Assembly: GCF_963082655.1 (NCBI RefSeq)
Contig: NC_081553.1
Location: 38,589,205-38,653,204, forward strand
Source: Stomoxys calcitrans
Taxonomy: Eukaryota; Arthropoda; Insecta; Diptera; Muscidae
Reading direction: 5' to 3'
DNA: 64,000 bases
Positions 26,185-60,265 of this stretch are shown piece after piece. The notes beneath the pieces are model-generated. The model did not search any database, was not told the origin of the DNA, and saw only the letters and a list, made by a program, of their open reading frames with translations. How positions within the stretch are numbered: the first letter of the stretch is position 1; each line of letters starts with the position of its first letter. The position numbers were made by a program, and so were the translations under genes.

Positions 26185-27910
26185 TTGAGCAACATGTTGC
26201 AGCAACAATGTTGCAAAGACAAAATAAAAAAAACTTTGTATACATTTTATTTTCTCCTAGAAATTTGCAAATGTTTTCAAGCAATTCCTTTCCTCTTTAC
26301 CTTATTTAGCAATTTTTGCTTGAGCAACATGTTGCTGCAACAATGTCGCAAAGACAAAATTAAAAAAAAAAATTGGATTAAATTTTTTTCTACTGGAAAT
26401 TTGCAAATGTTTTCAAGAAATTTCTTTCCTCTTTGCCTTATTTATCAAAAATCAAGCAAACTTTGGAAATTTTTAGGTTTTTGATTTGGCAACAAGTTGC
26501 TTCAACAATGTTGCTAGGACAAAAGAACTAAAAAAAGGACAAAAAAAGAACAAAAGAAAAAAAACTCTTTTCGCAAATGTTCCTGCACAAATGTTTTCCA
26601 AAACTGCATTTTATGCTAGCCTGATATATCAATAATCATGCACAATTTGGAAATTTTACATTTTTGCTTTAGCAACATGTGACTACAACAATGTTGCTAA
26701 GACAAAAGAACTTAAATCTATGCTAAAACTCGTATGCCCTTGGTAATAAGGAAGTGTTTTTCAAAATATTTCTTTTCTACTGGTCTTATTTTTCAAAAGT
26801 CTTGCATAATCTAGAAATTTTCGCCTTAGCAACATTTTCATGCAACATTATTGCAGGTCAAGTATGAAAAATTTTTCGAAAAATATTATTTTAGCTTTAT
26901 TTTAAGCTTAATGCAGTGTTTTAATTTTTGTTTTAAGAATTTGAATTCACCTTAGCATCATGTTGCATCAACATTGTTCCTCAGATAAATTGCACCTAAA
27001 TTAAAAGCAAATGTACATAGTCTTAAAATATTTGGACAAATTTTGCTAGCATAACTTTGCAATGTTAAGAAGTTTTAACAGAAAACAAAATGAATATAGA
27101 TTTTACCATAGTATCAGGTTGCAGCAACATTGTTGCCTAGATGAAACACATCTAAGTTGAATGCAACATGGCTGCAACATTGGATCTGAGGCGGAAGTTG
27201 TTTCAAGATTTCTCTAATTCTTAAAGACACGCCCAATATTATTCATTGACGCCAAATTGTTAATAGTAATGCGATATTTTAAAATTGCATTCCTTAGCAA
27301 CATGTTGCAGCAATATTGTTTCTTAGTTCAATATGACCAAAAGAAGTATAAATAAATGGTTTCAAAGGATTTTTTATTAAAAGCCATATTTTAATATTAA
27401 TTTTCTCCATTTTAAAGGCTTAAGTATTGAAAAAAGAGTTTCATTTCAACGTTGCTATGGCAATTGGATAGATACATATATTGTAAAATGTTTTTCTCAA
27501 AATGCCTAGTTATTGAAGACACTCAAAATTTTTGTTGTTTAACATGAATTGTCAAAATTTGGCTTCCTCTTTCTTAGCAACATGTTTCCGCAACATTGTT
27601 GCTAAGCCCAAATATAACCAAAAGTTATACAAATAACTGGTTTCTAGCGATTGTTGATTAAAGGGCACATTTTAACATTAAATGTCTCCATTTTAAAAGC
27701 TTTATTGGTTTTTAAAGCTTTTTTTGGTTTTTGTAAATATGGCAAAAATTAGATGACAAACATACAAAGTTCTTGTCTCAAAATATTGTCATTTATTTAT
27801 TTTTCATTTTTCCCAGTTTTTGAAGTCACAAAACTATATTTCTTTTGGCATAAATTTGCAAATTTTGGCTTTATCTTGCTTAGCAACATGTTGCCGCAAC
27901 ATTGTTGCTA
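26185..27910 (+). repeat. Box-A array, cluster 1 (GCAACATGTTGC family)
   Basis: About eleven copies of a box made of GCAACATGTTGC, a T/A, then GCAACAATGTTGC. Starts are near 26189, 26323, 26490, 26669, 26827, 26954, 27113, 27160, 27296, 27577 and 27881. Typical spacing is 127-183 bp, about double at the last two steps. Some copies are near perfect (26323, 27881), others are decayed (26827, 26954). Spacers are AT-rich and share only short words such as 'aaagacaaaa' and 'tttttgattaaagg'. Both half-boxes are self-complementary, so the whole box is close to a 27-bp palindrome. Confidence 0.85.
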
Positions 27911-30586
27911 AGGCCAAATATGGCCAAAAGTGATAGAAATAACTAGTTTCAAACGTTTTTTGATTAAAGGACACAATTTAATGTTAATATTCCTCATTCT
28001 AAAAACTTCATTTGGCTGTAAGCCAATAGGAAAAATATTTTGTTTAAATTTTTTTTTTTTTTGATTTTTGTACATTTTTAAAATCAAAAATTCCTTTAAT
28101 TTTCATTAAAATTTATTATAATTTTTAATGTAAGCGCTTTCTTTTCTTTTTTATTTTTTTTTTTATTTTTTTGTTTTAAATGTTTTCTAATTTCTACAAA
28201 ACCTCTAAACAAAAAACCCCCGTAACAAAATTCGCGTGTTAACTACCAGAAATCAAAATGTTCACTTAAGTTCAGTTTGCTACATGTTATACTTCCAATA
28301 TTCTTATGTTAAAGCAACATCGACAACAACAACAAAACGATATTAAATTAAGTTTTTGAACCCAAAAATTTCTAGTTAAGAGAGAAAAAAAACAACAACA
28401 TACAGCAGCAATATACACAAAACAAAATAGAAAAATTTCAACGAATTTAGCTTAATAGGCGAAAAACACGTAACTTCTTGGCGGGTTTTGTGATGTTACA
28501 TATACTACATGGCTCAAGGGATATTGCTGCATACCTACCTACATATGGTTATAAATATAATCAACATATTCATATATACATACGTTTCTAATATAATAGA
28601 TTCGTTGCTATTATGTTACATATATATAGCATACACCTAACAACAAACGTCTAAAAGGTGCTGCGGAAGAAGGAATACCTACCAACTACCTTGAATTACA
28701 CGTGTTTAGGCAAAGGCTAAATTCCTCGCTTTAGCCTCTTTTTTTGGTCTATATAGCCCAGAAATATGAAGTGGGAGTTTGAAGAGGCCTATGATGAATT
28801 TATTCCTCTTCGCCCTGCTTAGACTTTTTACCAATGTTGCTGTTTTGTTAGGAATTTCATGTATGAAAGCTTAAGAATTTTTGTAGTTCCTCTGTTATTT
28901 TTTTTCTTGCCTAGGGTATTATGGCTTTCCCTCCCCCTACCCCTTATGCTGGTGATGGCACAACATACTTGCATAATAATGGGAATTGACGCAGCACCAC
29001 CAACAGCAACAAAAATGTTGCCAACAACATGAATGGCGGACTGGCTGGTGTGGCTCTTCATCATCGTCAGTCCGTCTTTCCGTCCTTTGTATTTAGTTAG
29101 TCTTTCGAAGCTGGCTGGCTGCATGGGGTATGGGTTGTTGTGGTGTTCTGGTTATGAGTTGTTTTGTGATGTTGTCAAAAACATAAACTCTCGCTCCGCA
29201 ACACATCTTCTTAAAAGAACGGTGGGTGGCAAAGCAAGACAAGGGAGAAATAACAATAATGCCTAACCGCCCTCTTTAACAATTTAGCCTTCCCTGCCAG
29301 CTGAGCCAAAAGCATAGTGGGTGGTTGCTGTATTTTGTTAGAGTTTTTTTTTTTTGGCATGGTTATAAGCCCCGAAATCAATAATATTTCTTAAATGTAC
29401 ATATTTCCACACAAGTTTGGTTTTTGGCGGCAGGGGTGTAGTGGGGGAACTGCCTTATTTTTTTTGGAAATAAATCAAAAGCAAAAGGCAAAAGAGAAAA
29501 ACTTGTTTGTTAAAGCTTAGGAATATTCAATTATGTAAATTTAGCAGTTATATTTACACAAGACTTATAACAAAAAATATTCACAAGCAGCCGCCAACCC
29601 ACCATATCCATCCATCTACCACCAAGAAGAAGAAAAAAAACAACAACAACAACATCTAAAGCCATCTATCTATATCAATTTCATTTTCGATATTTCGAAC
29701 CACATTATAGCTGAGGTCATTATCTGCGTGTGTTTGTTTTTTTTTTTCCTACTACTTCGCCTTTTCTTCTACATTTGTGCTTGGTGAGGGAAGAGAGGGG
29801 TATAGGATTTTAAGCGGTTCATATGTTCAAAGGGTCATTGGCTATAATCATTTTAAAAGATTCAAAGCGTCTCCAAAGCTTAACATAAAAACAAGTTTCC
29901 CCTCCCCTCTCTCTCTCTCTCTTTCCTTCCATACCATATGATTGGTTAAGTCCAGAGAGAGGGGGGTTTTTTTAATGTTTTGTTATGAAAATCATATATA
30001 GCTGGACATTTGCCGCTATGCGCCACAACAATGCCGCCTAGCCAAAGAAAACCAGTAATCACGTGTTAAGGTTATTTTTGGGTCTCTTCTAAGAGAGTGG
30101 TTGGAAAAATAAAAAATAGATAATTTTTAAATAATTTCAACATACAACAAAAATGCAAAGAAAAATATACAAATTTTTATATTCATTTGATTTAAGCGAA
30201 AATAAAATTGAAAAAAATTGAGCTAATAAACTACAAAAAAAAAAATTACCATAAATTTTTGTTGGACCTCCCAAAAACAAAAAACATAAAAATAGATACC
30301 TCAAAAAATTTCTCTAAAATCGGGTTTTATAGCAAAGCAACAAAAATTAAAAAAAAATCTGCAAGGCATAATAAAACCAAGGGTTAAAAGTAAACATTTC
30401 AAATTTCATAGCTATAAATTATAGAAAATAAAGGCAAATGCTAAAGGTAGCTGAAAAATTATAACAAAAAAAAGGAAAATGTCAAAAATGTGTAAGAGAC
30501 CCAAAAACAATTTTTTTTTAAACTGAGATTAAGGTTAAGGAATTGATACGCCTTAAATCTAGGCTAATTGTAATGTTTGGGACTCA
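27911..30586. other. Gene-free intron sequence
   Basis: AT-rich with CAA/ACA runs (28318-28340, 29640-29655) and a CT-rich tract near 29895-29925. Frames at 28828-29124 and 29033-29266 overlap on opposite strands, show no domain and are not supported. Confidence 0.5.
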
Positions 30587-32160
30587 GCAACATGTTGCTG
30601 CAACAATGTTGCTGTAGTGTACATTCTGAATTTTTTTGGAAATTTAAATAAAAACTTACAAAATGAGTTTCTTATTAATTTCTGTGTAAAATTTTGTATT
30701 TCAGTCTTAGCAACATGTCGCTGCAACAATGTTGATAGAGTGGGAGACCCAAAAACAATTATTTTCAATTTTTTTTTGGACAAGATAATGATTTAGAATT
30801 TTATATGCCTTAGAGTTTAGTCAAATTGTAATGTTAAGGACTTAGCAACATGTTGCTGCAACAATGTTACTGGAGTGCACATTTCAAAATTTATTGGAAT
30901 TTTAAATAAAAATTTACAAAACTAGTTTCCCATCAAATATATGTGTAAAATATAATATTTCAGTCTTAGCAACACGTAGCTGTAACAATGTTGATAGAGA
31001 TTAAAATTGCTAAAATATTAAAATTATTTTACGATAAGCAAATTTTAGAAAAAATAGAAGAAATTATTCAAAATAAAGCACTTTTCTATTATTTTCTTAC
31101 TGCTTATCAAAAATCTGTATGCAATATTGTATTTTAGTCTTAGCAACATGTAGCTGCAATAATGTTGATAGAGATAAAAATTGCTAAAATATTGAAATTA
31201 TTTTCAGATAAGCAATTCTGAGCCAAAACATAAAAAAATTGAACAAAATAAAGCACTTTTATTTTATTTCAGTTTTAGCAACATGTTGATTGAACAATGT
31301 TGCTAGAACTGAAAATTATTGTTATTGTAAAAATATTCTCATAAGAGAAATTTTCAAAAAATATATATATTTATAAGATTAAGGCATAATAAAGTATTAT
31401 TAAAACAGATTAGAAGTGAAAGAAGAAGAAAACAGTGAAGAAGAAGAATGGAAGTTATAGCAAAATCTAAATAGCTGCAACAATGTTGCTAGATTTGAAA
31501 ATTATTGTTATTGCGGAAATATTCTCAGATTGAAAATTTTCAATAAGTATTAATAAAGAAAGATAATAAAAAATCAAGAAAAATTTCTTATTTCCTTAAT
31601 CCTAGAAATTTGAATCCTAGGTGCTAGAGCTAATTATGGCCATAGTTTCTAGAAACGCATAATTCTAATACATAATTTTTGCCAATTACGTTTTTTTATA
31701 TTCTTGGCAACATATATTTGCTGCATTTTTCTCTCCAAAGTCTTATTTCACATGCTAAATTACCCACAGCATACCTCAAAACGTCTTAAAACACATTTAA
31801 CTCATATTTCCTCTGAAAATCTATATAAACTGCAACCATATCAGCTCTGGCAACATGTTGTTGCAACAATGTTGCTAAAATCAAATATGGTCAAAACTGA
31901 AAAAAAAGATATTTCTACTTGCTTTTATTTTGAAATTTTGCAAAATACACCATTTTAACTTGGGCAACATGTTGCTGCAACAATGTTGCTAAAACCAAAA
32001 CTAGTCAAAATTGCAAGAAAAATTCAAATTTTTTATAAGTTTTAGATTTTTCTAATGGAATTAAAGTAAGAAAGGGCATTTTTAATTGCTTTTGTATGAA
32101 ATTTTGCAAAATACGCCTTTTCAGCTCCAGCAACATGTTGCTGCAACAATGTTGCTACAA
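30587..32160 (+). repeat. Box-A array, cluster 2
   Basis: About eleven copies near 30587, 30708, 30844, 30968, 31142, 31276, 31470 (half), 31706 (weak), 31849, 31963 and 32129. Spacings run 114-194 bp. Copies at 30587, 31963 and 32129 have the complete box: AGCAACATGTTGC or GGCAACATGTTGC, then TGCAACAATGTTGCT. This cluster keeps the longer right half (with the extra A, GCAACAATGTTGC), like cluster 1 and unlike clusters 3-5. Neighbouring copies have similar spacers (for example 30960-31180), showing tandem ancestry. Confidence 0.85.
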
Positions 32161-35100: not shown

Positions 35101-35299
35101 AAACTTAAGAAAACATAAAAACAAAAAAAATTTAAAAATAAAAACAATTAAAGCATTTTTTTAATTTACAAAAAAAGAAATAATTAAATATAAAATAAGC
35201 AGCACTTAAAATTCAATTGTGTTTTTGTATACAAAATCTGAACCAAAAAAATAAATTATAGTTAGCTGAAAGTTACAAAAAAGATATTTTTGTTAGTCC
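32161..35299. other. Gene-free intron sequence
   Basis: Contains CAA runs (32479-32500), GTT/GTTGCTG runs (34560-34590 and 34733-34760) and a long A-rich tract at 34970-35170. Frames at 32556-32948, 33176-33544 and 34368-34838 are made of homopolymer-derived residues and show no domain. No transposon recognised. Confidence 0.5.
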
Positions 35300-36712
35300 A
35301 GCAACATGTTGCTGCAACATGTTTGAAAAGCTTCCGTAGAAAATATTTCAGGGAACATTAACCACATACAAGAACACATCAACAACAAAATGCTCAACAA
35401 CCAAGATTGAGATTAACTTGGTTACGCAACATTTTGCAGCAACATGTATTTTGTATAACAAACGGCCTGTCTCTATCCAAAAAAGGATGTGGCAGAACAC
35501 ATTTTAAAATTACTTCTTAAAGCTTTATTTTGATAAAAAGCTTACGTAAGAATACTGATTTTTTTAATCAAGCAACATGTTGCAGCAACATTTGATTTAT
35601 ATATTACCTATTTCTCCAGATACATACACATACAAGAGTATTGGTATTACATAAAAGGCGTCTTGAAAGATATATTTTGGCATTAGAGTTCCTTACCTAG
35701 GTTTGAGTTACTTTTGTCTACATGTTGCTGCAACATCACATGTTAATATTATAAGCAAAGTTTTTTTTTTAGAATTTCAATGACATGAAATGATTTCAAT
35801 GACAACTTCTTATTCGAATTCCTCTTTGTTAGAATTGGCAATATGTTGCTGCAACATGTTTTGTTTAAAATAATCCGAAAGTTTTTAGAAGAAATTTATA
35901 TATGTCATAAAATTCTCTTGAATTTGGAAAGCAAATTTCAAATTTCCAAACTTTAATCAAATTTTCTCATGTAACAGCTAGCAATATGTTGCTGCAACTT
36001 TTAAAAAACTAATGACAAAATACTTTTTAGAACGTAAAGATAGAGATTTTGCGAAGTTCGGTTAAAAAAATAGTCATAAATTTTATCCTAATTTGAAAAG
36101 CAAAGTTCAAATTTTGAACTTCCTATTAAAAATCCTTTAGGGCATAGTTGGCAACATGTTGCTGGAAAATTTTCTATAATTAATAAATAATTTTTTAAAA
36201 AACTTTTTGTATGGAAAATTATGTTAACTGCAGTTGTTGATATATAACAAATTATTATTTGATACAAAATATGCTTCTTTTGTCAAGCAACATGTTGCAG
36301 AAATATTTCTAAGCTTTTCATCTGGTATGGCTGTTTTAAATTATAAATTCGTTTACATCTCTTAGCTAAAAATCTTATATAAAAAAAAATATCTCCGTTT
36401 GGAAAATAACAGCTTTTATGGCAAATTTTGTAAGCAACATGTTGCTGCAACATTGTTGACAAACTTGAAATATAATTTTCTTTTAAAACAAATGTGTTCA
36501 ATAAATCAATAATTTTCTTTTAAAACATTTAATCAATAGTGTATGTCTAAGGCTAGCAACATGTTGCCGAACCTTATTATGTTTCTCAAAAAATGCACAC
36601 AGTAACTGCTCAATTTTTAAGCTTTTCATAATTTTTTTTTCCCTGAAATAAGTACTATTAATAATAATCCAATATGTAGCTTTTGATCTAGGAACATGTT
36701 GCAGCAACATTA
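35300..36712 (+). repeat. Box-A array, cluster 3, ending 130 bp before hth exon 2
   Basis: Eleven copies near 35301, 35425, 35571, 35717, 35838, 35979, 36150, 36285, 36433, 36555 and 36691. Spacings are 124, 146, 146, 121, 141, 171, 135, 148, 122 and 136, averaging about 139 bp. Most have the short form GCAACATGTTGC plus T/A GCAACAT. Spacers are AT-rich and much more diverged than the boxes. The last box ends about 130 bp upstream of exon 2 (36842), i.e. roughly one further unit. Confidence 0.88.
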
Positions 36713-36841: not shown

Positions 36842-37128
36842 TATGATGATGGCCTGCATGGCTATGGTATGGATTCGGGTGCTGCAGCAGCTGCCATGTA
36901 TGATCCACATGTTGGTCATCGGCCGCCTGGATTACAAGGCCTACCATCACATCATTCACCACACATGACACATGCTGCTGCAGCAGCGGCCACAGTTGGC
37001 ATGCATGGCTACCACACAGCCGGTGCGGCTGGTGGCCATGGAACACCTAGTCATGTATCACCGGTTGCTAATCATTTAATGGGTGCAATACCCGAAGTAC
37101 ATAAACGTGATAAGGATGCTATATATGA
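36842..37128 (+). CDS. hth: homothorax coding exon 2 (residues 6-101)
   Basis: The acceptor is a long pyrimidine tract ending CTCCTTAG at 36841. The exon encodes YDDGLHGYGMDSGAAAAAMY and continues with a His/Gly/Ala-rich, Pro-containing stretch (residues about 15-85, poly-Ala at AAAAAA). It then reads MGAIPEVHKRDKDAIY and the first two bases (GA) of a Glu codon before the donor GTAAGT at 37129. Length is 287 nt, ending in phase 2, which matches exon 3. The unspliced frame would stop at once (TAA), confirming the donor. This N-terminal segment precedes the MEIS domain that contacts Extradenticle. GC content and codon use are well above the surrounding AT-rich DNA. Box-A clusters lie on both sides. 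Confidence 0.95.
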
Positions 37129-38140
37129 GTAAGTATAAAATCAAACAAAACAAAATCCCAGAACACATTCTAACACAGCAAAAGAACTCCAGCAAGCATA
37201 TGCAAATATCCCAAAGATCTGGTTTCAAATACCTGAATATCAGGTGGTTGGCCATATTACATGCTCGTGTGCCTTTATTTCCTTTTCCTGTGTGATGTTG
37301 CCTTTTATTTCAATTTAATTAAGGCCTGCCTGGAGGCATAATTTTGTAGGCGTTTCTTGATGATCGCTTTCTAAACACACACAAATGGTTTGCGCACGCG
37401 CAAATTAGGGGTTAGCCATTTGCCATTTAACAGAAGAAATTTTCTAAAAAAGAAATTTATTTATTGGTTTCATTTCTAGAGGGATAGGTGCTAATTTGGG
37501 TTTTCTTTATGAGCTTGATGAAAAAAATTCCTCCCTCTTTGTGTGTTTTACAGGCATGTGTTAGCGGCTGTCCCTCTGTCGTAGACACATCAATCATATT
37601 TCGTACATTTTCTTTGGTTTCATTGTTATGCCCATCAAGGAGCCTTTGAGACAAGTAATTAATCTGTTATTATAAGAAAACAAACAGAGAGACCTCTAGA
37701 GGCTAGCCTTCTTGGCTAAAGGAAAACAAAAACTCGACAAAGAAAAGGGGGGTAAGATTGAAGAAAAACGCCTGTCTTACTCTGGCATCCGCAGCAAAAA
37801 TATGATTATTATTTGTATATTAATTTAAACCACTTAACAAACATCTTAAAGAGTGTTAACTACTTGTCAGTTGTTATTGACACATAATGACATATTTGTC
37901 ATATTTTTGAAATGTATTAAAAGCCATCGATCGTTGGTGATGAGGATGAGAGAATTATTGGCAGGCAGCAGCAGTCATGTAATAATTAATTGGTAACAAC
38001 ATGTGTCTGAATAAATAATAACAGGAAGCAAAGTCATAAAGATGATAATGCAAAAAAGAAAATCGAGCAATAAAAACTATGACATTTATAAATCACTTTA
38101 TTAACTGACAATACATTGTCTGAGGTTTATGGAATTCCTA
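37129..38140. other. Gene-free start of intron 2
   Basis: Unique-looking sequence of relatively balanced composition, with no transposon or box copies. Slightly higher complexity than the rest of the intron makes it a reasonable place for conserved regulatory DNA, but nothing specific is seen. Confidence 0.4.
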
Positions 38141-39117
38141 AGATCAGCAACATGTTGCTGGAGAAAAAAATTTTTTTTTGTATAATTTTTAATATCTGCA
38201 GCAGACATTTGCAAATCAGTAACATAAGGCTGACATTTTTCAATTAAAAGTTTAAATGTAACTGACAAAAGGGTATCTGGGTTTATAGAATTCCAGGGAT
38301 CAGCAACATGTTGCTGAAAAAAACAAAATTTATAATAATTTTTTAAAATCTGCTGCTGTCATTTGCAAATCAGTTACATAAAGCTTAGCTTATTCTAGGG
38401 AGATCAGCAACATGTTGCGGAAAAAAAAATTCGACAATAATTCTATAATTATGTTTTTTTTAGCTTATTAAAACCTATTAGCATGTTGCAGCAACATTTT
38501 CTTTACCAATAAAACAAATATACCGATTAGACAAATACATTTAATATACAAAAACAAAATAAATTTTTCATAGTTCTTTTTGTTGTCTATGAACTCAAGA
38601 TCACTTGTTTTTGGCTGGCATTTACCACAGGGATAACTATCAAGCCAATGGTTGTCCAATTTATTTATTAATTGACAACCGTTGGTGATTTTATTTAGCA
38701 CCAATTTGGTTTTAAATAAATATGTATTCAAAAATTCGGTCGAAAGATTAACCATCTTTTCATCAACGGTGTTCTTCAATGAAATTTTATAAATATGTTG
38801 CTGCAAAATGTTGCTCTAGCATTTTTGGTTTTTTTTTCAATATCTATCGCCCAAAGTCATAATTTTCTATTATTCTGTGGGATTATTAAAAAAAATTAAA
38901 ACAACTTTTTTTTTAAATAGTTTTTAATTTCTTGTTGCATGGTTTAATTTCAACATGTTGCTGCAACATTTTTTTTTTTGAATAATTCGTATAAATGGTA
39001 ATCCAAAACCAGTTGTTTTCTGTAAACTTCTATACTTAAAAGCATTGAGGATTTAAGTTATAACCATATTCTCTTATGCCTTATAAGCATGTTGCTGAAA
39101 CATGTTGCCTGTAAAAT

Positions 39118-40667
39118 TTTTATACCCTCCACCATAAGATGGGGGGTATACTAATTTCGTCATTCTGTTTGTAACTACTCGAAATATTCGTCTGAGACCC
39201 CATAAAGTATATATATTCTTGATCGTCGTGACATTTTATGTCGATCTAGCCATGTCCGTCCGTCTGTCCGTCCGTCCGTCCGTCCGTCCGTCCGTCCGTC
39301 CGTCCGTCCGTCCGTCCGTCCGTCCGTCCGTCCGTCCGTCTGTCTGTCGAAAGCACGCTAACTTCCGAAGGAGTAAAGCTAGCCGCTTGAAATTTTGCAC
39401 AAATACTTCTTGTCAGTGTAGGTCGGTTGGTATTGTAAATGGGCCATATCGGTCCATGTTTTGATATAGCTGCCATATAAACCGATCTTGGGTCTTGACT
39501 TCTTGAGCCTCTAGCGTGCGCAATTCTTATCCGATCAGAATGAAATTTTGCACAACGTGTTTTGTTATGATATCCAACAACTATGCCAAGTATGGTTCAA
39601 ATCGGTTCATAAACTGATATAGCTGTCATATAAACAGATCTGGGGATTTGATTTCTTGAGCTTCTAGAGGGCGCAATTCCTATCCGATTTGGCTGAAATT
39701 TTGCATGACGTATTTTATTTTTACTTTCAACAACTGTGTCAAATAAGGTTCAAATCGGTTCATAACCTGATATAGCTACCATATAAACCGATCTTGGGTC
39801 TTGACTTCTTGACCCTCTAGAGGGCGCAATTCTTATCTGATTGGAATAAAATTTCGCACGTCGTGTTTTGTTATGATACCCAACAACTGTGCCATGTATG
39901 GTTCAAATCGGTCCATAACCTGATATAGCTACCATATAAACCGATCTTGGGTCTAGACTTCTTGACCCTCTAGAGGGCACAATTCTTATCCGATTTGAAT
40001 GAATTTTTGCACGAAGTATTTCGTTATGATATCCAACAACTGTGCCAAGTATGGTTTAAATCGGTTCATAACCTGATATAGCTGTCATATAAACAGATCT
40101 GGGGATTTGATTTCTTGAGCTTCTGGAGGGCGCAATTCCTATCCGATTTGGCTGAAATTTTGCATGACGTATTTTATTTTTACTTTCAACAACTGTGTCA
40201 AATAAGGTTCAAATCGGTTCATAACCTGATATAGCTGCCATATAAACCGATCTGGGATCTTGACTTCTTGACCCCTAGAGGTCGCAATTATTATCCGATA
40301 TGCCTGAAATTTTGTACGATGGATCCTCTCATGACCATCAACAAACGTGTTTATTGTGGTCTGAATCGGTCTATAGCCCGATACAGATCCCATATAAATC
40401 GTTCTCTCTATTTTACTTCGTGAGCCCCAATGGGCGCAATTCTTAAACGAATTGGCTGAAATTTTACACAGGCCTCCAACATATAATTTAATTGTGGTCC
40501 GAACCGGACCATATCTTGATATCGTTTTAATAGCAAAGTAACTCTTTTCTTATATACTTTTTTGCCTAAGAAGAGATGCCGGGAAAAGAACTTGACAAAT
40601 GCGATCCATGGTGGAGGGTATATAAGATTCGGCCCGGCCGAACTTAGCACGCTTTTACTTGTTTTAT
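39118..40667 (+). mobile_element. Complete DINE-1/Helentron-like non-autonomous element
   Basis: The 5' end is 'tataccctccaccataagat' followed by ggggggtatac, a sub-terminal inverted repeat against 'atccatggtggagggtatat' near 40604. Next comes 'cataaagtatatatattctt', 'gtcgatctagccatgtccg' and a TCCG microsatellite (about 39254-39340). Seven units of 152-155 bp follow ('tatagctgcc' or variants at 39463, 39618, 39771, 39923, 40078, 40231 and about 40384). The 3' end is 'gattcggcccggccgaactt' then agcacgcttttacttg. No Rep/helicase is encoded, so movement would need an autonomous partner. Layout matches the fly DINE-1 type as I know it. Confidence 0.82.
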
Positions 40668-41473
40668 ATATATATTTCTTGGAAATATCTACCAAAATTA
40701 AAAAATAAGTTAAAATTTCTCTTTAATTCTATGGGAAGTGAACAAAAATTGTATTAATAGTATTTTCAAAAAAAAAAAAATAATAATAATAAATTTATGG
40801 CAACATGTTGCAGCAACATTTATTCACGTAATGCGTAGAAAGATCAAACCAAAATAAAATTTACTATCTTTTATCCTTCTTTTTGTATAAAACTATTAAG
40901 GAAAAAGTTATTCTACATTGTCCCTCTAATATTTATAAATTTTTTGCAATATCTTGCTGCATGTGGCTCAAAAGAGATTTTCCATGTTGCAGCAACATTT
41001 TATGAAATATATGGAAGAAAAGTTGTTTTTTTCTAATCGTGTTTCGTATAAAAGTATTAAGAGAAAAATTTAATCACATTTTCTCTAATATTTATCAAAT
41101 TTTCCTTCATGTTGCTACAACTTGTGGTTTTACCATTGCTTTAAATATTTCGTAGAAAAGTCTTTAAAAATAACCCAAATTTTGAATTTTTTTTCTTCAA
41201 ACCTATAGGAAGGTAGAACAATTTTTTTTACTTGCATTTTCAAAAAAAAATTTTTTATGTCAACATGTTGCTGCAACATTTTTCCCAATTTCTTGGAAGA
41301 AACGTTAGGTTAACAAAAGTTTCTCGTTTTTATTCTTCTTTTATGTATTAAGAATAAAAATTTGTTTCATATTATATTAGTCAAGTAATTTCAACATGTT
41401 GCTGCAACATGTTGCTCTAGTAATATTTCTTTCAAATATCTATCAATTAATTTCAACATATTGCTGCAACATG

Positions 41474-41515
41474 TAAATGCAAATTTGCCCAAGAACATTC
41501 CATTAAGGAACTGAG
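41474..41515 (-). mobile_element. 42-bp SINE family 1 tail inserted in a box-A copy, with target duplication
   Basis: The insert 'caaatttgcccaagaac' and 'attccattaaggaact' is the tail of SINE family 1. GCTGCAACATG occurs on both sides (41463-41473 and 41516-41526); at least the first 8 bases are a target-site duplication of the box itself. The insert is truncated at the tRNA-head side, as expected of aborted retroposition. Confidence 0.7.
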
Positions 41516-41690
41516 GCTGCAACATGTTGCTCTAGTAATATTTGTTTCAAAAATTTCCTTGAAAATTATACCAAAATAATTTCAAGTAATAAAAGTTTTA
41601 TTTAAATCCAAAGAAAGTAAACAATTATTTTAACAACTGTATTTTCAAATTAAGATTTCTAATTGCAACATGTTGCTGCATCATTTTTTC

Positions 41691-44208: not shown

Positions 44209-45965
44209 AAATGTTGCAGCAACATTTTCTTACAAAAAATCATGCTAAAATGAGAAATTTTTTAGAATTGTAGGGTAGGCAAATGTTGCCTGAATTTCTC
44301 ATAAGGCATAGGTGAAATAATAGCAAAAATCGCAATCCCATGGCAGCCGGCTGTAGGTACCGGTTTGACCCCACTGAGGCGGCAAGTGCTGCCGCCTCAG
44401 TGTACAACACACTGCTACTGCAACAAATATAGCATGAATAATGCAAACATATTCAGACACATGTTGAAGCAACTTTTTAAACATTTTTCGGATTAGGTTT
44501 AACACTTAATGATGCAATATGTTTTGGTGCAGAGAATTATGAATAAAAATTCAAAAATTATGCGGCAGCAAGATGTTTCATTACTCTCCCATAAAAAAAT
44601 GACTATATACTGGAAAAAAGCTATAATCAGATTCGGCAACATGTTGATGCAACATTTCTCAAAAATAAATACATACAACAAAATAATGAAACATTTTTCA
44701 TTATAAAACACTAAAATAGTGCTTCAAATACTATAAACAGTTTCAGCAACATGTTGATGCAACATTTCTCAAAAAGAAATATATACAAAACAAAGAAAAC
44801 TAAACATTTTTTATTACAAAATGCTAAAATAATACTTAAAATACCATAACAGGTTTCAGCAACATGTTGATGCAACATTTAAACAAAATTTATGGCGATT
44901 AGTTTTCAATTTTATGCTGAAATATATTTTGAGGTAGAAAATAATGAACAAGAAATCTTAAATTATAGGGCAGTCAAGTTTTCGGAAATAAATTCTGGAA
45001 AAAAAAATAACAGCCGTAATGTTTTTTTACTATACCATAATGTGGCAAAAATATTAAAATTCAAATTTGTGGCAACATGTTGCTGCATCATTTACCAAAA
45101 AGATTCAATTTAAAAAAAAAAAACAGAAAATACGAATTTCCGGAAGAAAAAAACTGTGATAACTTTGTTTGACTGCTCCATGGCAAACACATTTTTAATT
45201 TTTGTAACCGGCAACATGTTGCAGCAACATTTTTAAAAATGATTTTGCTTCAGAAAACAGGGAATTAAAGAAAGGTTTCTGGAAGAAAACGAAGAAAACA
45301 ACAGTTTTTTTTAATGCTCCATAGTGAGGCAGAAACATTTTTAATTTTTATTTACATCAACATGTTGCAGCAACATTGTAAAGAATATTTTTAATTCTCA
45401 TAAAAGGGAAATTGAAGAATTTACCAGGGTAGAAACTACTAAATGAATATATATTTTAAAGCTTCTGCACTTTGACAAAAAATTGTTGGGCCAATTTGTT
45501 TTAAAATTAGGTGGGCAGTATGTTGCTGCAACATTTGGTTTCCAAAGCTGCAAAATTTTTTCTTAATAAACATTGTCTTGAAGACTTTAGAAATATCTGT
45601 GGTAGGCTTGAACACTAAAACTGAACATTAACGATTGGGTTGTTTATAATTCATAAATGTTTCAGCAACATGTTGCAATAGAATTTCATAAAGTTTTTGC
45701 AGTTTTTAAAATGGTAAAACAACGTCTATTTCATACCAAATGAAAGTCCAACAGTTTTTTTAAATTATAGTTATACCCTTAGGCAAATCTTATTTATCAA
45801 CATGTTGCTGCAACATTTCCTCATATAAGCAATTTCCAGAAATTTGTAAAGAAAATATTTTAATTTTGTTTTGGTTGAGTATCACCTTGATATACTTTTC
45901 CCAACTTATGACCTCTTCTTAGAATGACCTCTTTCCTCTCATAAACAATGTTGCTGCAACATTTT
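44209..45965 (+). repeat. Box-A array, cluster 5
   Basis: About twelve copies near 44210, 44457 (decayed), 44636, 44744, 44860, 45070, 45210, 45356, 45515, 45662, 45796 and 45944. Spacings are mostly 108-160 bp. Three neighbours (44636, 44744, 44860) share the variant GCAACATGTTGATGCAACAT, with GAT instead of GCT, and nearly the same flanks ('tttcagcaacatgttgatg'), showing recent local duplication. The frame at 44892-45113 runs across the array and is not a gene. Confidence 0.85.
44328..44428 (+). mobile_element. SINE family 3 internal fragment
   Basis: 'atcccatggcagccggctgt' continuing 'aggtaccggtttgacccc' and 'gcctcagtgtacaacacact' matches the middle of the copies at 18540-18620 and 22100-22190. 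Both ends are missing; it sits within box-A cluster 5. Confidence 0.65.
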
Positions 45966-47086: not shown

Positions 47087-47228
47087 ACATCCCCTATTCC
47101 CGCTGTTGGCTCTAATATTTGAAAAATGTGAATTGGCCACATGTACGCCCAGAGAACCTGGTGTGCAAGGTGGTGATGTATGTTCGTCAGAATCATTTAA
47201 TGAAGATATTGCAATGTTTAGTAAACAG
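47087..47228 (+). CDS. hth: homothorax coding exon 3 (start of MEIS/PKNOX N-terminal domain)
   Basis: The acceptor TTCTTACAG ends at 47086. The first base completes the split Glu codon, then the exon encodes [20 protein letters not shown], followed by [20 protein letters not shown] and IAMFSKQ. The donor GTAAGT is at 47229, phase 0. This is the near-invariant beginning of the MEIS/PKNOX N-terminal (HM) domain, the part of Hth/Meis that contacts the PBC protein Extradenticle. Length is 142 nt (residues 102-148). The rest of the domain should begin with the IRSQKPYY-type segment in the next exon; I could not find it before 64000. The domain sequence leaves no real alternative to hth among fly genes. 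Confidence 0.96.
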
Positions 47229-47367
47229 GTAAGTTTCATAGAGTTGTAAGAAATAAAAAAAATTAAAACAAAAACATAAAACGGGAATAAAAATCATAGA
47301 GGAAATGAAAAGCCAAAAGAAAATTAAAAAAAAAAAGTAATAATAGTACAAAATTTAAGTTTAAGCT

Positions 47368-48480
47368 TTAGCAACATGTTGCTGCAACATGTTGTTTCAT
47401 AGAGTTGTAAGAGAAAATTTAAAAAAGGAATACAAAAAGAGAATTAAAAGCATATAAGAAATGAAAAGCCTTAGGAAAATTGGTAAATAATAAAAATTTT
47501 AGAAAATTAAAGTTTTAGCTTTAACATCATGTTGTTGCAACATTGTTGCTAAACAAAAATTTTTTGAAACCTAAAGGAATTTCACCAAATTATTGTTTAA
47601 AAATAAGCAACAATTCAATATTTCGTACTTTAGGAATACAGAAAGGGAATTAAAAGCATATAAGAAATGAAAAGCCTTAGGAAAATTGGTAAATAATAAA
47701 AATTGTAGAAAATTAAAGTTTTAGCTTTAGCATCATGTTGTTGCAACATTGTTGCTAAACCCAAATTTTTTGAAACCTAAAGGAATTTCACCAAATTATT
47801 GTTTAAAAATAAGCAACAATTCAATATTTCATACTTTTGATCTATTGCATATCTAAAAAGAAAGTATTGTTAACTTTCCTGACTTTTTTTCACATTTTAT
47901 TTGAAATGTTGCTAAAACATTGTAACAGCCTAAGCTTTTTTCAAATTAAAATGGTTTTTCAGTCACAAATTACTTCAGCTTTTGTTTAAGCGCCTAAAAT
48001 AACGTAATATTACATTTTCTACCTTGGCAACATGTTGCTGCAACAATGTTGCTAGACTTTAAACAGCCCCAAATAGTAGCGAATTTAATTTGTTTTAGTT
48101 CTTCTTCTTTATCAAAGCAGTTTCAAGACAAAAATAAAAAAAATTTACAGCAAATTTTTTTTTTTTAATTTATTTTCAAATGTTCGCTGATACTTTTAAG
48201 AAAATTGAGTTGTAAAAATAGTTTTGAATTTGTTTTTAACATTAGATTCTAATTTTTGTTTAATTTTTCCTTATTTTTAATTTACCTTAAAAGAAAGTAT
48301 TGTTAACTTTCCAGTCTTTTTTCACATTTTTTTTGAAATGTTGCTGAAACGTTGTAACAACCTAAGCTTCTTTCAAATTAAAATTGTTTTTCAGTCACCA
48401 GATTTTGTTTAAACGCCTAAAATAACGTAATATTACATTTTCTGCCTTGGCAACATGTTGCTGCAACAATGTTGCTATAC
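47368..48480 (+). repeat. Box-A array, cluster 6, starting 140 bp after hth exon 3
   Basis: Copies lie near 47371, 47527, 47733, 47908 (weak), 48029, 48338 (weak) and 48453. Two longer duplications are visible. About 205 bp repeats ('gaaatgaaaagccttaggaa' at 47459 and 47664). About 425-432 bp repeats ('gaaagtattgttaactttcc' at 47860 and 48293, with the full box at 48029 and 48453). The copies at 48029 and 48453 are complete, GGCAACATGTTGC then TGCAACAATGTTGCT. The duplicated block at about 48290-48720 repeats the text at 47860-48290. Confidence 0.85.
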
Positions 48481-53600: not shown

Positions 53601-53746
53601 TTAATAAAATATTTAAAAACTAAACATAAGTTGTGAGATGCTTAAAAGTATTGTCCAAAAAGTCCATTCCCAAAAATAAGAAACTGGACAAATAAAAAAA
53701 AAAAATTGCGAATATAAATGATCGGGCGCCAACATATTGGTTTCAC

Positions 53747-53965: not shown

Positions 53966-55010
53966 TATGCAGGCCTAGTTTTCCCCATAAACAATTTTTT
54001 AAATCCTAAAGATTTATGTTTTACAATAAGTCTAGAAAATTCAAATTCCTAAAAAATCTTTTGCTCGGGCGCCAATTTTCTTTTAAATAATTTTTTATTA
54101 CAATTTAATTTTCGAGGGTCAGACTCCGCAGCCCTGGTTTTCCCCATAAAAAATTTTTAAATCCTTAAAATTTATGTTTTACAATAAGTCTACAAAGTTC
54201 AAATTCCTAAAAAATCTTTTGCTCGGGCGCCAATTTTCTTTTAAATTATTTGTTATTACAATTTAATTTTTATATACAAATTTAACATATTGGTTTCAAC
54301 AGAAAATATATTTATAATGTTATTGAGATTCCATTGCAGGGTATTGTCTGGTTTTAGACCATTGTTTAATGCTTTCTTTTCAAAGAGTAGCATAGCAAAA
54401 ACGTTTTGAAATCAGCAAAAATGTGTTGTTGAAGCATTTGACTGGCTCTCCATATCGGGATTTCATTTTCGACCTAGAAAAATCATCAGCGGATGATGTC
54501 GAATGGATTTGAAATGTTTATGACTTTACAATGATTCTGTGGCGTACATTTTGTGCAAAAAATTTCTGCTCGGGCGCCAATTTTTTTAATATATTTTATT
54601 AAAATTTAAATTTTAACAAAAATTTACTTTTCAATTTTCTATTTTCTTTTGAGGAAGTAACATAACATATTATACATATAAAAAAATCTTTTTAAATATA
54701 TTAAAATTTGTTAGACAAAATACATGAACGGGCGCCAGGTACATTATTTTTTTGATAAAAAAAATTATAAAAATTCTAAAAACCTACATAATTAGAAGTA
54801 CATAAAAGAAAAATCTGTTGTGTAAGGAAACTTAAAAAATAAAAATGTTCCTGCACGGGCGCCATTTTTTTTTTAATTCTTCTTTATAGCATCTTTAAAA
54901 AGGAGTTCTAAGCTCTTCTTGCAATAAGTTATGTGAATATTTAAAACTTTTTTCAGTCGCAACTATTTTTTTAATGATTTTGATGATTATAACTCTGCTC
55001 GGGCGCCATT

Positions 55011-57313
55011 TGTTCAGTTTCAGTCCACTATTTTTTGACAATCCAGATTTTTTTTTAGTTTTTTTTTAATATTTTTTTTTTGTTTCTTGTTTTTCTCTTT
55101 GTTTACCGTCCTCTTAATTATTTTTTTTTGTTTTTTTTTGGGATACCATTTTTTATGATATTTTTCATATTTCTTTATTTTTTGAATTTTTGTAATTAGA
55201 ATTAATTTCTTAAAAGCTTTTTGCCATTTAGCCATCCTAATGATTTCACATTCATTAATGTTTTTTTTTTTTTTTGTTGGTTGCAACAATTTAAATAACG
55301 TTTTCTCATTAACATTCTTTTCCACCTCCTCAATCAGTTTCAAATACAAAATTAAGTATTTCGTAAATGTTATAAGGTCGAAAAGAACATATATAAAAGA
55401 AACGATATGTATTTCGGCAGAATTTAGAATTTATTGTTTTTTCCGTCTGCGTCTCTAAAGCAGGTACCACACAGCAACCTTTTACTATAAATACAGTTTT
55501 TTTTCTGGGTGTTTTTTTTTTCGTTATTCTTGGCTGGTTAAGAGGGAAATGATCATTTCAGTTTAAAATGCGTTGTTTTAACATTCCTTGTTGGCTTTGG
55601 GTTTAATCTCTTTTGTTTAAGAAGAAGAAGGAGATCAACAAACATCGTTTGTTTTTTGTCAAATGATAAAAAATGAGTTCAGGATTTACCTTTTTTGCTT
55701 GGGATCACCTTTTTTTTTAAAGACAAATCATAAATGCTTTTCATTCTCTAAACCAGGCAAGGGAAAAATTCCTTTGGCAAATGCTCTCAACCCTTAAAGG
55801 AAAAGGTTTTAAATTTCTTTTTAAATGCTTGGCCATTGTTTTCAAAAAAAAAAAAAAATACCTATACAACAATAAGCCCCGCATACAACACATTAGGTGT
55901 ATGCCACGGCTGGCATATTTGAAAGGATACCAAAATTGGTAAACGGCAAAAAGAGCAATATTTAAATGGTTAGTATTGTTTAAAGGATTTTTTTCTTTTT
56001 TTGGAAACAAAGGATCATGCCAGGGGAATCTGGTTTATACTACGAATCATGCAAGCCACATATGCAACAGTGCTGATTTGAGCGAACCCCTAAGGGGAGG
56101 GTTGGTGGGAAATTGCGCATTTTGTTGTTATGAATGCTAAGTGAGGGGAGCAAAGAGCCCTGCTGCCTGTTTCATTATCTTTAGTTTAAAGTTATACGAC
56201 TTGACATAATTCCCTACTGCTGGGCCATGGTGATGCCTAAACGGCTATGGTGGTCTTTTGGACTCTTCCAACACTGTGCTGTTTATTTTAATTGTTTTAA
56301 AAAATAAAATCAAATTAGACGCCTTCATAAACAATCCCAAGAACTCTAGGCCAAAATCGTTTAGCCCTTTCTATGGAAATGGAATGGAACTACAAAAGGT
56401 TGCCCTGCTTATTTTACACTTGATTGGTCTCAATAAAAGCAAAAAAATATTTATAAATATTTCAAGTTTTATTTTAGCCTATTGGGGCTTTAGGACTTTG
56501 TTTGTTTTACTTTATTCATTTGAGGACAAATTTGTTATTAAAATTTTGGATTTTGCTACAATCCTTAATTTTTCCAAAGAAAAACATTTTCTAATTCTCT
56601 AAGTTTGAAATTTTTCAAAAAATCATCTCGATGATTGATGTGAACTTGTGTTGCCCAAAGGAAACTTGGTTTTTTTTCATCTTCGCACTACTTCTATAGC
56701 GTTTGCTCACGAATGTATGTTTACTTTATTAGAAATGGTGTTTTTTTTTTTTTTTTTATAACCCAAAAACAAAACGAAAAAACTACACCGCAAACCATCA
56801 CATCACCTCCTTGGCCGCCCTAGAACCAAATGCTACAAAAATGTTTATTAATTGAGTGAGTGAGAGGTGGCCACAGTTGCCCCTGATCAATTTTAGGTGG
56901 GGGTGCGAAAATAACCAAAAAAACGATTTTTTTCTCTTACGCAAATTCTTAATGAAAATGAACGAACGCAAAAAAAACGCGCCCGTATATATTGGAAAAA
57001 CGAAAAAAAAATTGTTTTCATTTGAAAACACTCGGTAGCCGAGAAGGCAGGGGTCTCGCGTTTTTTTTTTTTAATAATGAAATGAAAATGTGTTGTGAAA
57101 GTCGTAGTCATTTGGTCTAAATATATACCATGCCACCAAACACTATGTTGAGAGAGTGTCTATGACGTGTGTGTTTTCTTTGGGTTTTGGATGAGGGGCG
57201 CATTAGTATATGTGATTTATTTCAGCATAATTGTTAATGAAAATTTTCGAGTGTTGAGGAATTTTAAAAAGAAACAACAAAACAATAGTAAAAGAAAATA
57301 AAAAAAAAAAAAT
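55011..57313. other. Gene-free intron 3 sequence
   Basis: T-rich on the plus strand at 55045-55145 and 55259-55276; the Lys-rich minus frame at 55020-55349 is a by-product of this. Other frames (55741-56010, 56258-56602) are AT-driven and show no domain. No repeat shared with the rest of the window. Confidence 0.5.
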
Positions 57314-58382
57314 CAGCAACATGTTGCTTTAAAAAGAAAAGCATTAAATAATGAAGTTTCATAATAAAATATAAGTAAAACGTTTTATTAGCTTAAAATA
57401 GTTTTCCTAAGCTTGAAAATGTTCGAAAAGTATGTTTAATTGGTTATTTTTGAGTAAAATAAAAAAATTATGTTGCGTCAACATGTTGCTGAATTTGGTT
57501 GATACATATTTTGCTCAACATTTAGTCAAAAATCAGTGTCCACTCCAATGTTATTAAATATAATGTTATTAAAAAAAATTGAATGTTGCATAAACATGTT
57601 GCTGGGAATAAATTTTTCTTATCTCAAGCAACAGGTTTTTCGAAGAAAAAAAAATTAGAAATAAAGATGATCAATATTAAAATATTGGTAAAACGTTTTC
57701 ATTTCTTAAAATAATTTTCCTCAGTATAAAAATGTTTAAAATCTATGTCAAATTAGTAGTTTGTCAGTAAAACTAAAAAACCATGTTGCATCAACATGTT
57801 GCTGAAGTTTGTTGATACACATGTTTCTCAACACTTTGTCAAGAATTTGTATCCACTCCAACTCAAAGTGTTAAATGTTATTGAATGAAATAAAAAATTA
57901 AATGTTGCATAAACATGTTGCCGGAAATAATTTTTTCTAATCTCAAGCAACAGGTTTTTCGAAGAAAAAAAATTAAATAAAGAAGTTCGTATTAAAATAT
58001 TTGTGAAACGTTCTCATTCCTTAAAATAATTTTCCTCAGTTTAAAAATGTTTTAAAACTATGTCAAATTGGTTGTTTGTCAATAAAATTAAAGAACAATA
58101 ATGTTGCATCAACATGTTGCTGAAGTTTGTTTAAACACATATTCTAGTATATTGTCAAGAATTTGTATCGACTACAACTCAAAATGATAAATGTCTTCTT
58201 TTTGAAAAAAAAAAACAAAAATACATATATACATCATAAACATGTTGCTGGCAACAAATTTCTCTTAATGCTTTAAAGCCATTTAATGTATTCAGAAACT
58301 TTTAAAGTATTTCTGGAATATATACCAGTATAATTTATATCAATCTTTATTTAAAAATGTTGCAGCAACATGTTGCTGAAAC
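57314..58382 (-). repeat. Box-A array, cluster 7, inverted orientation, ~319-bp dimeric unit
   Basis: After a half-box at 57314, boxes read ATGTTGCATCAACATGTTGCT or ATGTTGCATAAACATGTTGC-type at about 57473, 57581, 57780, 57900, 58099 and 58358, i.e. the reverse complement of clusters 1-6. Alternating copies form a higher-order repeat: 57473, 57780 and 58099 (TCAACATG form, about 307 and 319 bp apart) and 57581 and 57900 (TAAACATG form, 319 bp apart). Long flanks match too, such as 'ctcaagcaacaggtttttcg'. So two different ~110-200-bp monomers were amplified as a dimer. Confidence 0.85.
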
Positions 58383-60070
58383 AAGATTTGTTAAAAAATG
58401 GCAAATTTTTCGGTTCCTAAAACCTATTTTCTTTCTTTTTTTATATATCTCTAAGCCATTACCAATTTTAATTTGTCATGCATTTTAAGTGGCCTACTGT
58501 TTTTTTTTTTTTCTTTATTTTCTCCTACCGGATGTTTATAAACATGTGCAGCTACCTATCTAGCACACTACAAATCCATAATAAAACAAAACCAAAATCA
58601 TTCGTTAGTTCATTCATTCCCGCATTTAGATTAGCTAAGCCCTATACCATCACAAGAGGGGGAAAAAAACAGTGAAAGTAGCAGTCAGATGTTGTAGAGG
58701 AATCATAAAAACAAATAGTAACTGAAACCTGCACAAAAACCCACATAACAAAAAATCTCTGTCATATCACAAATATTGACACTATTGCAGGCCCAAAAAA
58801 AAGAAAGATAGAATTCATGGTACACTATTTTTTATTTGGTTACACAAAAATTATCAACAGTTCTTTCTTCGACAAGAAAGAAGCTCAACGCTTTACAAAC
58901 ATACAGCATTTTTTTTTTATGGTAGCTAATGTTTAACTAATATTTGTTGATATTGTCATTTGTTGTCTATTGGCGCGTCTTTGCTTGAAGGTAGCAGTAA
59001 ATACAGTATCTTGCTAAGCAAGAGCCAGCCAGCACTGCAGCCAGTTGTTGAATTTAAGTGTTGTAAAGATAATGAAGAACAGCAAACAAAAAAAAAATCG
59101 TATAGGGAGACATACCATGCTGTACATACTAGACCACAACAAAAACGAAAAATACCAGCTACAAACATAAACACTGAGACACTTACTACTTACCTACTGA
59201 GGAAATAACAAATAATAAAAATATGAAAAAAAAAAAAGAAATCAAACAATAACACATGTTGTTGCTTGCTATGCAATGCTTTAAATAAATATTACAACAA
59301 GAAATTATTACAAATTACAATTTGGTTTGAATTTTTTGGTAATGGTAACATCATATCACACTAGAGGGGAAGAGTGGGAGAGAGATGGGGGTCTGAGAAT
59401 CCCCTGCTTCAAAACTGTTGCTTATTAACTTTTGTATAAAACTGAATATGTTATCTTTATGATTTTTTTTTCTTTCGTTACCATTTTTTATGCAGGCCCA
59501 GGCCTATTTGGTTTTATGGTTAAATGGCTGGGGAATTGGAGGGTGTATTAAGGGGGGACTCTGGCAGAATAACCCACCAGTGGTAGGTGTCATAAACCAC
59601 TCCATTGCCTTTGGGTTATAAAAATGTAATCATGGTTTTACTTTTTTATATAGTAGATGATGCACCTTCTCTTCATTGTGCTATAAAGATAGATACACTG
59701 AAAAAAAATGGTGGTTAAAACTATAAATAAAAAATTAAAAAAAAAATTAAAATAAAAAAATCAGAGATGCAAACTCTAATAAATATTTATTTTAAAAGGA
59801 ATTAAAAAAATATGAAATAAATAAAAATTAAAAAAAAAAAAATAAAAAAATAATAAAAATTAATCAATTATCAATCACTTATTTAAAGTTTTTCTGGATT
59901 ATTTGCGTTAATTGTTATACCTTTTTATTTTATTTTATTTTTTATAAGATATTTCTTTTTATTTTTTTTTTAATTTTATTTTTTAATTAATTTTTTTAAA
60001 TTAACGTTTTTTTCTACCTACAAATAACCACATATAATTTCCACTTATTTGTAAAAAGAGTGTTTAGTTG
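58383..60070. other. Gene-free intron 3 sequence
   Basis: AT-rich; long A/T low-complexity tract at 59700-60000. The frames at 58956-59174 (minus) and 58960-59208 (plus) lie on top of each other and show no recognisable domain. No transposon seen. Confidence 0.5.
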
Positions 60071-60071
60071 T

Positions 60072-60265
60072 AGCAACATGTTGCTAGAACAATTTTCTGC
60101 TCTAGGTCTGTTAATTCTCCACAGAATCTTTATAAATCCAACTATTTTACCTTTTTTTTAGAAAATTAGCTGCATTCCACAAAATTAAACGAAATTTTTG
60201 GTTTAGTGTAAGCAAATGTTGCTTCAACATATTGCTTCAAAATGTTGCTTCAACATGTTGCTGAA
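60072..60265. repeat. Isolated box-A copies
   Basis: AGCAACATGTTGCT at about 60072, then 140 bp later a run of three half-boxes within 50 bp (AAATGTTGCTTCAACAT, AAATGTTGCTTCAACATG and GTTGCTG at 60213-60263). Orientation follows cluster 7. This is the last trace of the family in the window. Confidence 0.7.

What the first reader, a model, noticed from the sequence alone, without database searches (positions are those of the whole stretch)
26185..60265. Palindromic box (GCAACATGTTGC + GCAACAATGTTGC) repeated about 60 times at ~120-180 bp through hth introns
Seven clusters plus outliers carry the same box while spacers have diverged almost beyond recognition. Each half-box is self-complementary, and the full box is close to a 27-bp palindrome. 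Ordinary satellite decay would erode box and spacer equally. Selective survival of the box suggests one of three things: a constrained protein-binding site (a CENP-B-box-like situation), an RNA structure in hth pre-mRNA, or a gene-conversion or mobility signal acting on the box. I know of no described family with this layout. Novelty is inference.
Basis: partly seen in the sequence, partly recalled or inferred. Interest (0 to 1): 0.9.

Follow-up and report, generated by a model that had tools for sequence, protein, structure and literature searches.

The report
Palindromic 12-base box array in hth
A fly's homothorax gene carries about a hundred copies of one 12-base mirror-image word, roughly every 140 bases through part of its introns, that stay nearly unchanged while the DNA between them decays, which suggests an unusually large set of docking sites for a DNA-binding protein not yet identified.

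Summary
The stated span holds 67 boxes (CAACATGTTG, at most 1 mismatch; 45 exact). Continuing 6.7 kb past the window end gives 98 (70 exact) over 44.5 kb, where a Markov model expects 0.1 exact copies. They lie between and just upstream of three hth exons. The constant part is the 12-mer GCAACATGTTGC; the second half-box is largely confined to three clusters. In hand-chosen tandem units the 12-mer diverges four times less than spacer (0.059 vs 0.248; 12 of 13 groups), and the low-divergence stretch ends near its edges. Two units tested occur nowhere else in the genome, which argues against a transposon. Smaller clusters with unrelated spacers exist elsewhere, with weaker constraint. Best reading: a dimeric protein's binding site, multiplied by local tandem duplication and kept by selection; the protein is unknown. 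The half-site, and the second half-box exactly, match the published Doublesex consensus, but the conserved 12-mer lacks Doublesex's central A/T. p53, RNA-hairpin and transposon readings did poorly. Closest precedent: mouse intronic fuzzy tandem repeats with p53 sites, far smaller. No other species could be compared.

The parts
26189..27908 (.). cluster 1: 7 boxes, most with the second half GCAACA[A/T]TGTTGC
30587..32156 (.). cluster 2: 8 boxes, most with the second half GCAACAATGTTGC
35301..36702 (.). cluster 3: 13 boxes, ending 141 bp before the hth N-terminal coding exon
36842..37129 (+). hth N-terminal coding exon (no retained box inside; a 1-mismatch hit at 36905 was dropped)
38147..39108 (.). 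cluster 4: 6 boxes, several inside TCAGCAACATGTTGCTGA-like palindromes
40800..41676 (.). cluster 5: 7 boxes, including a 13-bp tandem pair
44636..45808 (.). cluster 6: 8 boxes
47088..47231 (+). hth exon, start of the MEIS/PKNOX N-terminal domain
47371..48476 (.). cluster 7: 6 boxes, last four with the second half GCAACA[A/T]TGTTGC
57316..58376 (.). cluster 8: 8 boxes on three 313-bp tandem units; the unit has no copy elsewhere in the genome
60073..60262 (.). cluster 9: 4 boxes, three in a 13-bp-period run. Clusters 10 (about 64196-65331, 14 boxes) and 11 (about 68437-70697, 17 boxes) follow past the window end, the last box about 240 bp before the exon at 70928

Best explanation
GCAACATGTTGC is the double-stranded DNA binding site of a protein that docks as a symmetric dimer. 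An ancestral box in an hth intron was multiplied by repeated local tandem duplication of box-bearing segments (about 110-420 bp). The spacers then decayed while selection kept the 12-mers, leaving a platform of about 100 sites at roughly 140-bp spacing that most likely acts as a cis-regulatory or chromatin element of hth. Shown: the array, its spacing, its confinement to one stretch of hth, lower divergence of the 12-mer than of spacer, locus-specificity of two spacer units, and dispersed or clustered boxes elsewhere that share no long flank. Inferred: that a protein binds, that selection rather than conversion keeps the box, and that it regulates hth. The protein is not identified.
For: Divergence 0.059 in the box vs 0.248 in spacer across 43 hand-chosen units in 13 groups (ratio 0.24, bootstrap over groups 0.13-0.30; 12 of 13 groups). 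Mean mismatch 0.00-0.13 at the 12 box positions vs 0.28 and 0.24 at the bases just outside (15 box columns). CAACA-to-TGTTG spacing is 0 bp 70 times and 1 bp 17 times, other spacings up to 11 bp 5 times in total: a fixed dimer geometry. The palindrome is shared by clusters with and without hairpins. Eight other loci fetched (L027-L034) share with the array, around the box, only about 20-50 bp; their longer matches are to other repeats. The 18-mer CAACATGTTGCTGCAACA (at most 2 mismatches) has 206+164 genome hits vs 15+15 for the reversed control. Other clusters with unrelated spacers: L035 13 boxes, L036 12, the C5:77.67-77.68M locus 14. Two hth units tested occur only at this locus.
Against: No binding or expression data and no other species. 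Concerted evolution could mimic constraint. Units were chosen by hand and share ancestry. One group (47k) goes the other way, 0.083 vs 0.031. In the other loci the effect is weaker, 0.155 vs 0.264, lower in the box in 18 of 19 overlapping pairs. The 12-mer itself is only moderately frequent genome-wide: 239 vs 52 for the reversed control, 49 of the 239 in this array. Regular spacing could come from tandem duplication alone.
Confidence: 0.6

Rival explanations
1. A specific form of the best explanation: the platform is for a DM-domain protein (Doublesex or another DMRT), each box offering two to four GCAACA/TGTTGC half-sites, giving hth sex- or tissue-specific input.
For: GCAACAATGTTGC is the published Dsx consensus (passages) and part of a DM-domain gel-shift probe. 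GCAACA[A/T]TGTTGC occurs 189 times in the genome vs 10 for the reversed control, 13 of them exact in this window's array. The composite 24-mer (at most 3 mismatches) has 70 hits vs 0 for the control, 35 outside hth, some with an intact Dsx site (L031, L043). DMRT1 can bind as dimer, trimer or tetramer (passage). Homothorax is named as a putative Dsx target in a horned beetle (passage).
Against: The conserved 12-mer lacks the central A/T that defines the DM site; the 13-bp half is absent from most clusters while the 12-mer stays. The four other cluster sets have no CAACA[A/T]TGTTG. Some genome copies of the 13-mer sit in repeats (L062 and L064 identical over 113 bp).
Confidence: 0.2
2. The box is a recombination, replication or conversion signal: a protein acting at it causes local duplication and keeps the box uniform, so arrays grow wherever a box occurs, without benefit to hth.
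For: Boxes occur in tandemly duplicated contexts at several unrelated loci (L028 duplicated pair, L035, L036), with spacings around 100-160 bp common in them.
Against: The low-divergence stretch is about 12 bp, far shorter than usual conversion tracts (recalled); many boxes are single in the genome.
Confidence: 0.15
3. An ordinary decaying local satellite: tandem duplications without function, the box looking conserved through alignment anchoring, mutation bias or unequal exchange.
For: Spacer homology within clusters shows tandem duplication; nucleosome-scale repeats are common in satellites (recalled).
Against: Box and spacer in the same units should decay alike; they differ fourfold in 12 of 13 groups, and clusters with unrelated spacers keep the same 12-mer.
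Confidence: 0.12
4. An RNA element: boxes pair within hth pre-mRNA to steer splicing or circular RNA formation.
For: Box 40-mers fold better than background (mean -6.3 vs -3.0 kcal/mol; 43 of 98 vs 66 of 500 below -6), strongly in three clusters (means -10.5 to -11.1); boxes flank exons.
Against: The other 8 cluster bins average -3.4 to -6.4 and the 64k cluster is near background, yet its boxes are conserved. Genome hits of the 18-mer fall on both strands.
Confidence: 0.06
5. p53-family sites: CAACATGTTG is a CWWG-core half-site.
For: CAACATGTTG is the second decamer of the human p21 5' p53 response element (passages).
Against: Consensus RRRCWWGYYY excludes C at position 1 and G at 10, which are near-fixed here; true RRRCWWGYYY decamers are not enriched (6 in 45 kb vs 16 in about 95 kb upstream) and AACTTGTT/AACAAGTT are rare (2 and 3 vs 81 AACATGTT).
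Confidence: 0.03
6. Ends of a transposon or MITE family.
For: Palindromic boxes could be fused terminal inverted repeats.
Against: Two whole units (319 and 493 bp) find only this locus in the 1.07-Gb genome; dispersed boxes share no long flank.
Confidence: 0.03

Closest known systems
Intronic fuzzy tandem repeats with clustered p53 response elements (mouse Rbl2, Ncoa1, Klhl26; PMC3386156, passages seen)
   Same: Palindromic TF half-sites embedded in imperfect tandem repeats, in an intron in the Rbl2 case, lineage-variable, bound and active in assays there
   Different: A handful of sites there (7 half-sites in Rbl2) against about 98 over 44.5 kb here; different motif; p53 consensus not met; no binding data here
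Doublesex / DM-domain 13-bp site GCAACAATGTTGC (PMC4652034, PMC4342991, PMC1931443, passages seen)
   Same: Same 6-bp half-site GCAACA/TGTTGC; the second half-box is the exact consensus, 13 exact copies in the window
   Different: The constrained 12-mer has no central A/T
Satellite with a conserved protein box, such as the CENP-B box (recalled)
   Same: Units near nucleosome length with a short conserved box
   Different: Spacers not homogeneous; array split over one gene's introns; no centromeric context tested
Homotypic transcription-factor site clusters in enhancers (recalled; listing only)
   Same: Many copies of one site near one gene
   Different: Regular spacing of about 140 bp, tens of kb long, tandem-repeat origin

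Membership tests
DM-domain (Dsx/DMRT) binding site | Half-site GCAACA / TGTTGC inverted | tested here: met
   consensus from passages
DM-domain (Dsx/DMRT) binding site | Single central A/T between the halves | tested here: not met
   spacing 0 in 70 cases vs 1 in 17; the 12-mer is what stays conserved
DM-domain (Dsx/DMRT) binding site | Binding by a DM protein | not testable with these tools
   no binding data held
p53 response element | RRRCWWGYYY decamers | tested here: not met
   position 1 is C in 93 of 98, position 10 is G in 92 of 98 (boxes chosen at 1 mismatch or fewer); RRRCWWGYYY not enriched
Fuzzy tandem repeat with TF sites | Imperfect tandem repeats carrying a repeated site | tested here: met
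Fuzzy tandem repeat with TF sites | Factor bound and regulating the host gene | not testable with these tools
   no ChIP or reporter data
Transposon/MITE | Interspersed copies of the whole unit | tested here: not met
   2 units searched, only this locus found; the tool warns that counts are lower bounds
Structured RNA element | A hairpin common to the copies | tested here: not met
   strong in 3 of 11 cluster bins only
CENP-B-box-like satellite | Homogeneous satellite at centromeres bound by CENP-B | tested here: inconclusive
   spacers not homogeneous; binding and centromere not testable

The most novel reading that the evidence does not exclude
A gene-specific, tens-of-kilobases platform of about 100 copies of a zero-spacer palindrome (GCAACA directly abutting TGTTGC), read either by a new dimeric factor or by a DM-domain protein in an undescribed zero-gap, multi-protomer mode, that sets hth chromatin or expression and keeps growing by tandem duplication; smaller copies of the same device sit in other genes.
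Probability: 0.3. Interest if true: 0.82.

Novelty: new variant of a known kind. Interest (0 to 1): 0.62.

Why it matters
If the boxes are bound, this would be an extreme natural homotypic site array in a Hox-cofactor gene. It would let one measure, within a single locus, how selection keeps individual transcription-factor sites while tandem repeats turn over, and it offers a bait of about 100 sites for finding the unknown protein. If the protein is a DM-domain factor, it would tie sex-determination factors to hth through a new site geometry.

Tried and rejected
Rejected or weakened by test: p53 decamers; RNA hairpin as common denominator; transposon family; canonical Doublesex site as the conserved element. 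Grainyhead: AACCGGTT 0 copies. Iroquois was considered from recall (ACA..TGT cores); a paper search listed 3 papers, none opened, and it was not pursued.

Led nowhere: naming the gene at L035 (its 185-aa ORF gave 18 unnamed relatives); firm naming of the C5 gene (92 C2H2 proteins, none shown as lola; the lola name is recalled). Genome searches did not complete: pattern ATGTTGCTGCAACAT, pair search with 89-119 bp gaps, homeobox family PF00046.

Print check: motif strings were searched, homothorax with palindrome, intron and tandem repeat. One search listed 8 papers, passages of 4 opened; one search listed 8, passages of 3 opened; one search listed 1, not opened. Nothing opened describes such an array; the 12-mer appears once in a Drosophila ush reporter fragment. 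Subscription papers are not held. No other fly genome and no Dfam/Repbase were available.

Weaknesses of my counts: (0.053 vs 0.190) includes three low-complexity alignments between 61k and 70k, which raise the box value; units were cut by hand; the core profile is conditioned on at most 1 mismatch; most genome searches list only the first 100 rows or so; the loci L027-L060 were picked from those lists.
Full report
Observation. CAACATGTTG with at most 1 mismatch occurs 67 times in 26185-60265, 45 of them exact; I left out two 1-mismatch hits by hand, one inside a coding exon (36905) and one at 53730. Fetching 100 kb on each side shows that the array continues to about 70.7k in window coordinates: 98 boxes, 70 exact, in 11 clusters by a 700-bp rule. 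Elsewhere in the 264 kb there are 12 hits, all with one mismatch. First-order Markov expectation is 0.098 exact copies in 45 kb.

Place. Reading frames and recalled Hth/MEIS fragments put exons of homothorax on the + strand at 36842-37129, 47088-47231, 70928-70993, 73879-73932 and 90183-90266; PF16493 finds this locus in two places and nothing else at the cut-off. Boxes lie upstream of the first of these exons (presumably intron 1; exon 1 was not located) and in the next two introns. The nearest retained box to the three exons is 141-240 bp away. No exact box follows the exon at 70928 within the stretch held.

Anatomy. The half words CAACA and TGTTG occur as CAACA-TGTTG with spacing 0 (70 times) or 1 (17 times), with 5 cases at other spacings up to 11, and as TGTTG-NNN-CAACA 43 times. 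The 12-mer GCAACATGTTGC is thus the common unit. The second half GCAACA[A/T]TGTTGC accompanies it mainly in three clusters; the full box at up to 3 mismatches occurs 27 times. Gaps between boxes cluster at 100-170 bp (56 of 82 gaps of 20-700 bp; random mean 17, maximum 30), though tandem duplication alone could give this.

Constraint. I cut 43 tandem units in 13 groups by hand, aligned them with MAFFT, and compared box columns with spacer columns: 0.059 vs 0.248, ratio 0.24 (bootstrap over groups 0.13-0.30), lower in 12 of 13 groups; the exception is the young 47k pair, 0.083 vs 0.031. The mismatch profile over 15 box columns is 0.00-0.13 inside the 12 positions and 0.28 and 0.24 just outside, with weaker conservation at positions 13-23 where the second half-box lies. 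An earlier BLAST-based count gave 0.053 vs 0.190, box value inflated by three low-complexity alignments. Conversion could mimic selection, but would need very short tracts.

Rest of the genome. The 12-mer occurs 239 times (reversed control 52), 49 of them in this array. CAACATGTTGCTGCAACA at up to 2 mismatches: 206 forward and 164 reverse hits, control 15 each (first 100 rows listed). Composite 24-mer at up to 3 mismatches: 70, control 0, 35 of them in hth. Eight loci fetched share only about 20-50 bp with the array around the box; their longer matches are to other repeats. Pairs of exact boxes 120-150 bp apart: 28 (control 4), of which 21 in hth, 3 at C5:77.68M, 2 at C2:199.86M, 1 each at C3:181.16M and C3:94.9M. 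L035 holds 13 boxes and L036 12; the C5 locus 14, between C2H2 exons that resemble lola's alternative exons (name recalled; one search returned dipteran C2H2 proteins without that name). In these loci the box also diverges less than spacer, but the effect is weaker: 0.155 vs 0.264, 18 of 19 overlapping pairs. Two hth units, 319 and 493 bp, match only this locus.

What binds it. GCAACAATGTTGC is the Doublesex consensus in the passages I saw of PMC4652034, PMC4342991 and PMC1931443. It is 19 times over its reversed control in this genome (189 vs 10), and 13 exact copies are in the window. DMRT1 can use several protomers (passage of PMC9713387). In 20 sampled 13-mer loci extra half words in the flanks run at 10.4 per kb, in 20 sampled 12-mer loci at 6.8 per kb, against 4.4 per kb background; two loci in each sample are identical copies. 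Against a DM protein: the conserved unit has no central A/T, and the other four cluster sets have no DM-type 13-mer. p53: CAACATGTTG is half of the human p21 element but consensus decamers are not enriched here. So the half-site fits a DM protein, the geometry does not, and the factor stays open.

RNA reading. Box 40-mers fold better than background (mean -6.3 vs -3.0 kcal/mol; 43 of 98 vs 66 of 500 below -6), but strongly only in three clusters; the 64k cluster averages -3.4 and still keeps its boxes (0.067 vs 0.219).

Verdict. A constrained palindromic binding site amplified by local tandem duplication is the best account (0.6). The nearest described layout is mouse intronic fuzzy tandem repeats with p53 sites (passages of PMC3386156), with 7 half-sites in Rbl2 against about 98 boxes here. 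I call it a new variant of a known kind. The missing facts are the protein and the between-species comparison.

Noticed in passing
L038 (C3:176053701-176058700), with L029 and L037: An array of related but differently built palindromes, ten TGTTG-NN-CAACA words such as ATGTTGCGCAACAT, near four exact or near-exact 12-mer boxes: the same half-site in everted order.
   Followed up: partly
L039, L030, L040 (C5:77671400-77684600): About 14 boxes between C2H2 zinc-finger exons on the minus strand that look like lola's alternative 3' exons (gene name recalled).
   Followed up: partly
L035 (C2:199861000-199869000) and L036 (C3:181155500-181163500): Clusters of 13 and 12 boxes with spacers unrelated to hth; the gene context was not identified.
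   Followed up: partly
C1:54915849/54924717, 79418581/79427439, 262174998/262183863: Doublesex consensus 13-mers in pairs about 8.86-8.87 kb apart; the first members of two pairs are identical over 113 bp (L062, L064), as if carried in repeat ends of a dispersed element.
   Followed up: no
window 13708-14696, 17201-18186, 21440-21909, 39462-40319: 153-bp tandem repeats in several blocks, with matches in other fetched loci.
   Followed up: no
window 12415-13585 and 39254-39348: A 17/34/51-bp TGTC-rich tandem array and a GTCC microsatellite of about 24 units.
   Followed up: no
L017, window coordinates 64430-65322: In the 64k cluster boxes come in pairs about 42 bp apart and the second follows a pyrimidine tract plus CAG, resembling 3' splice sites.
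   Followed up: no
C2:10388126 (L043) and C2:90872970 (L031): Full composite boxes (box plus perfect Doublesex 13-mer) standing alone outside hth.
   Followed up: partly
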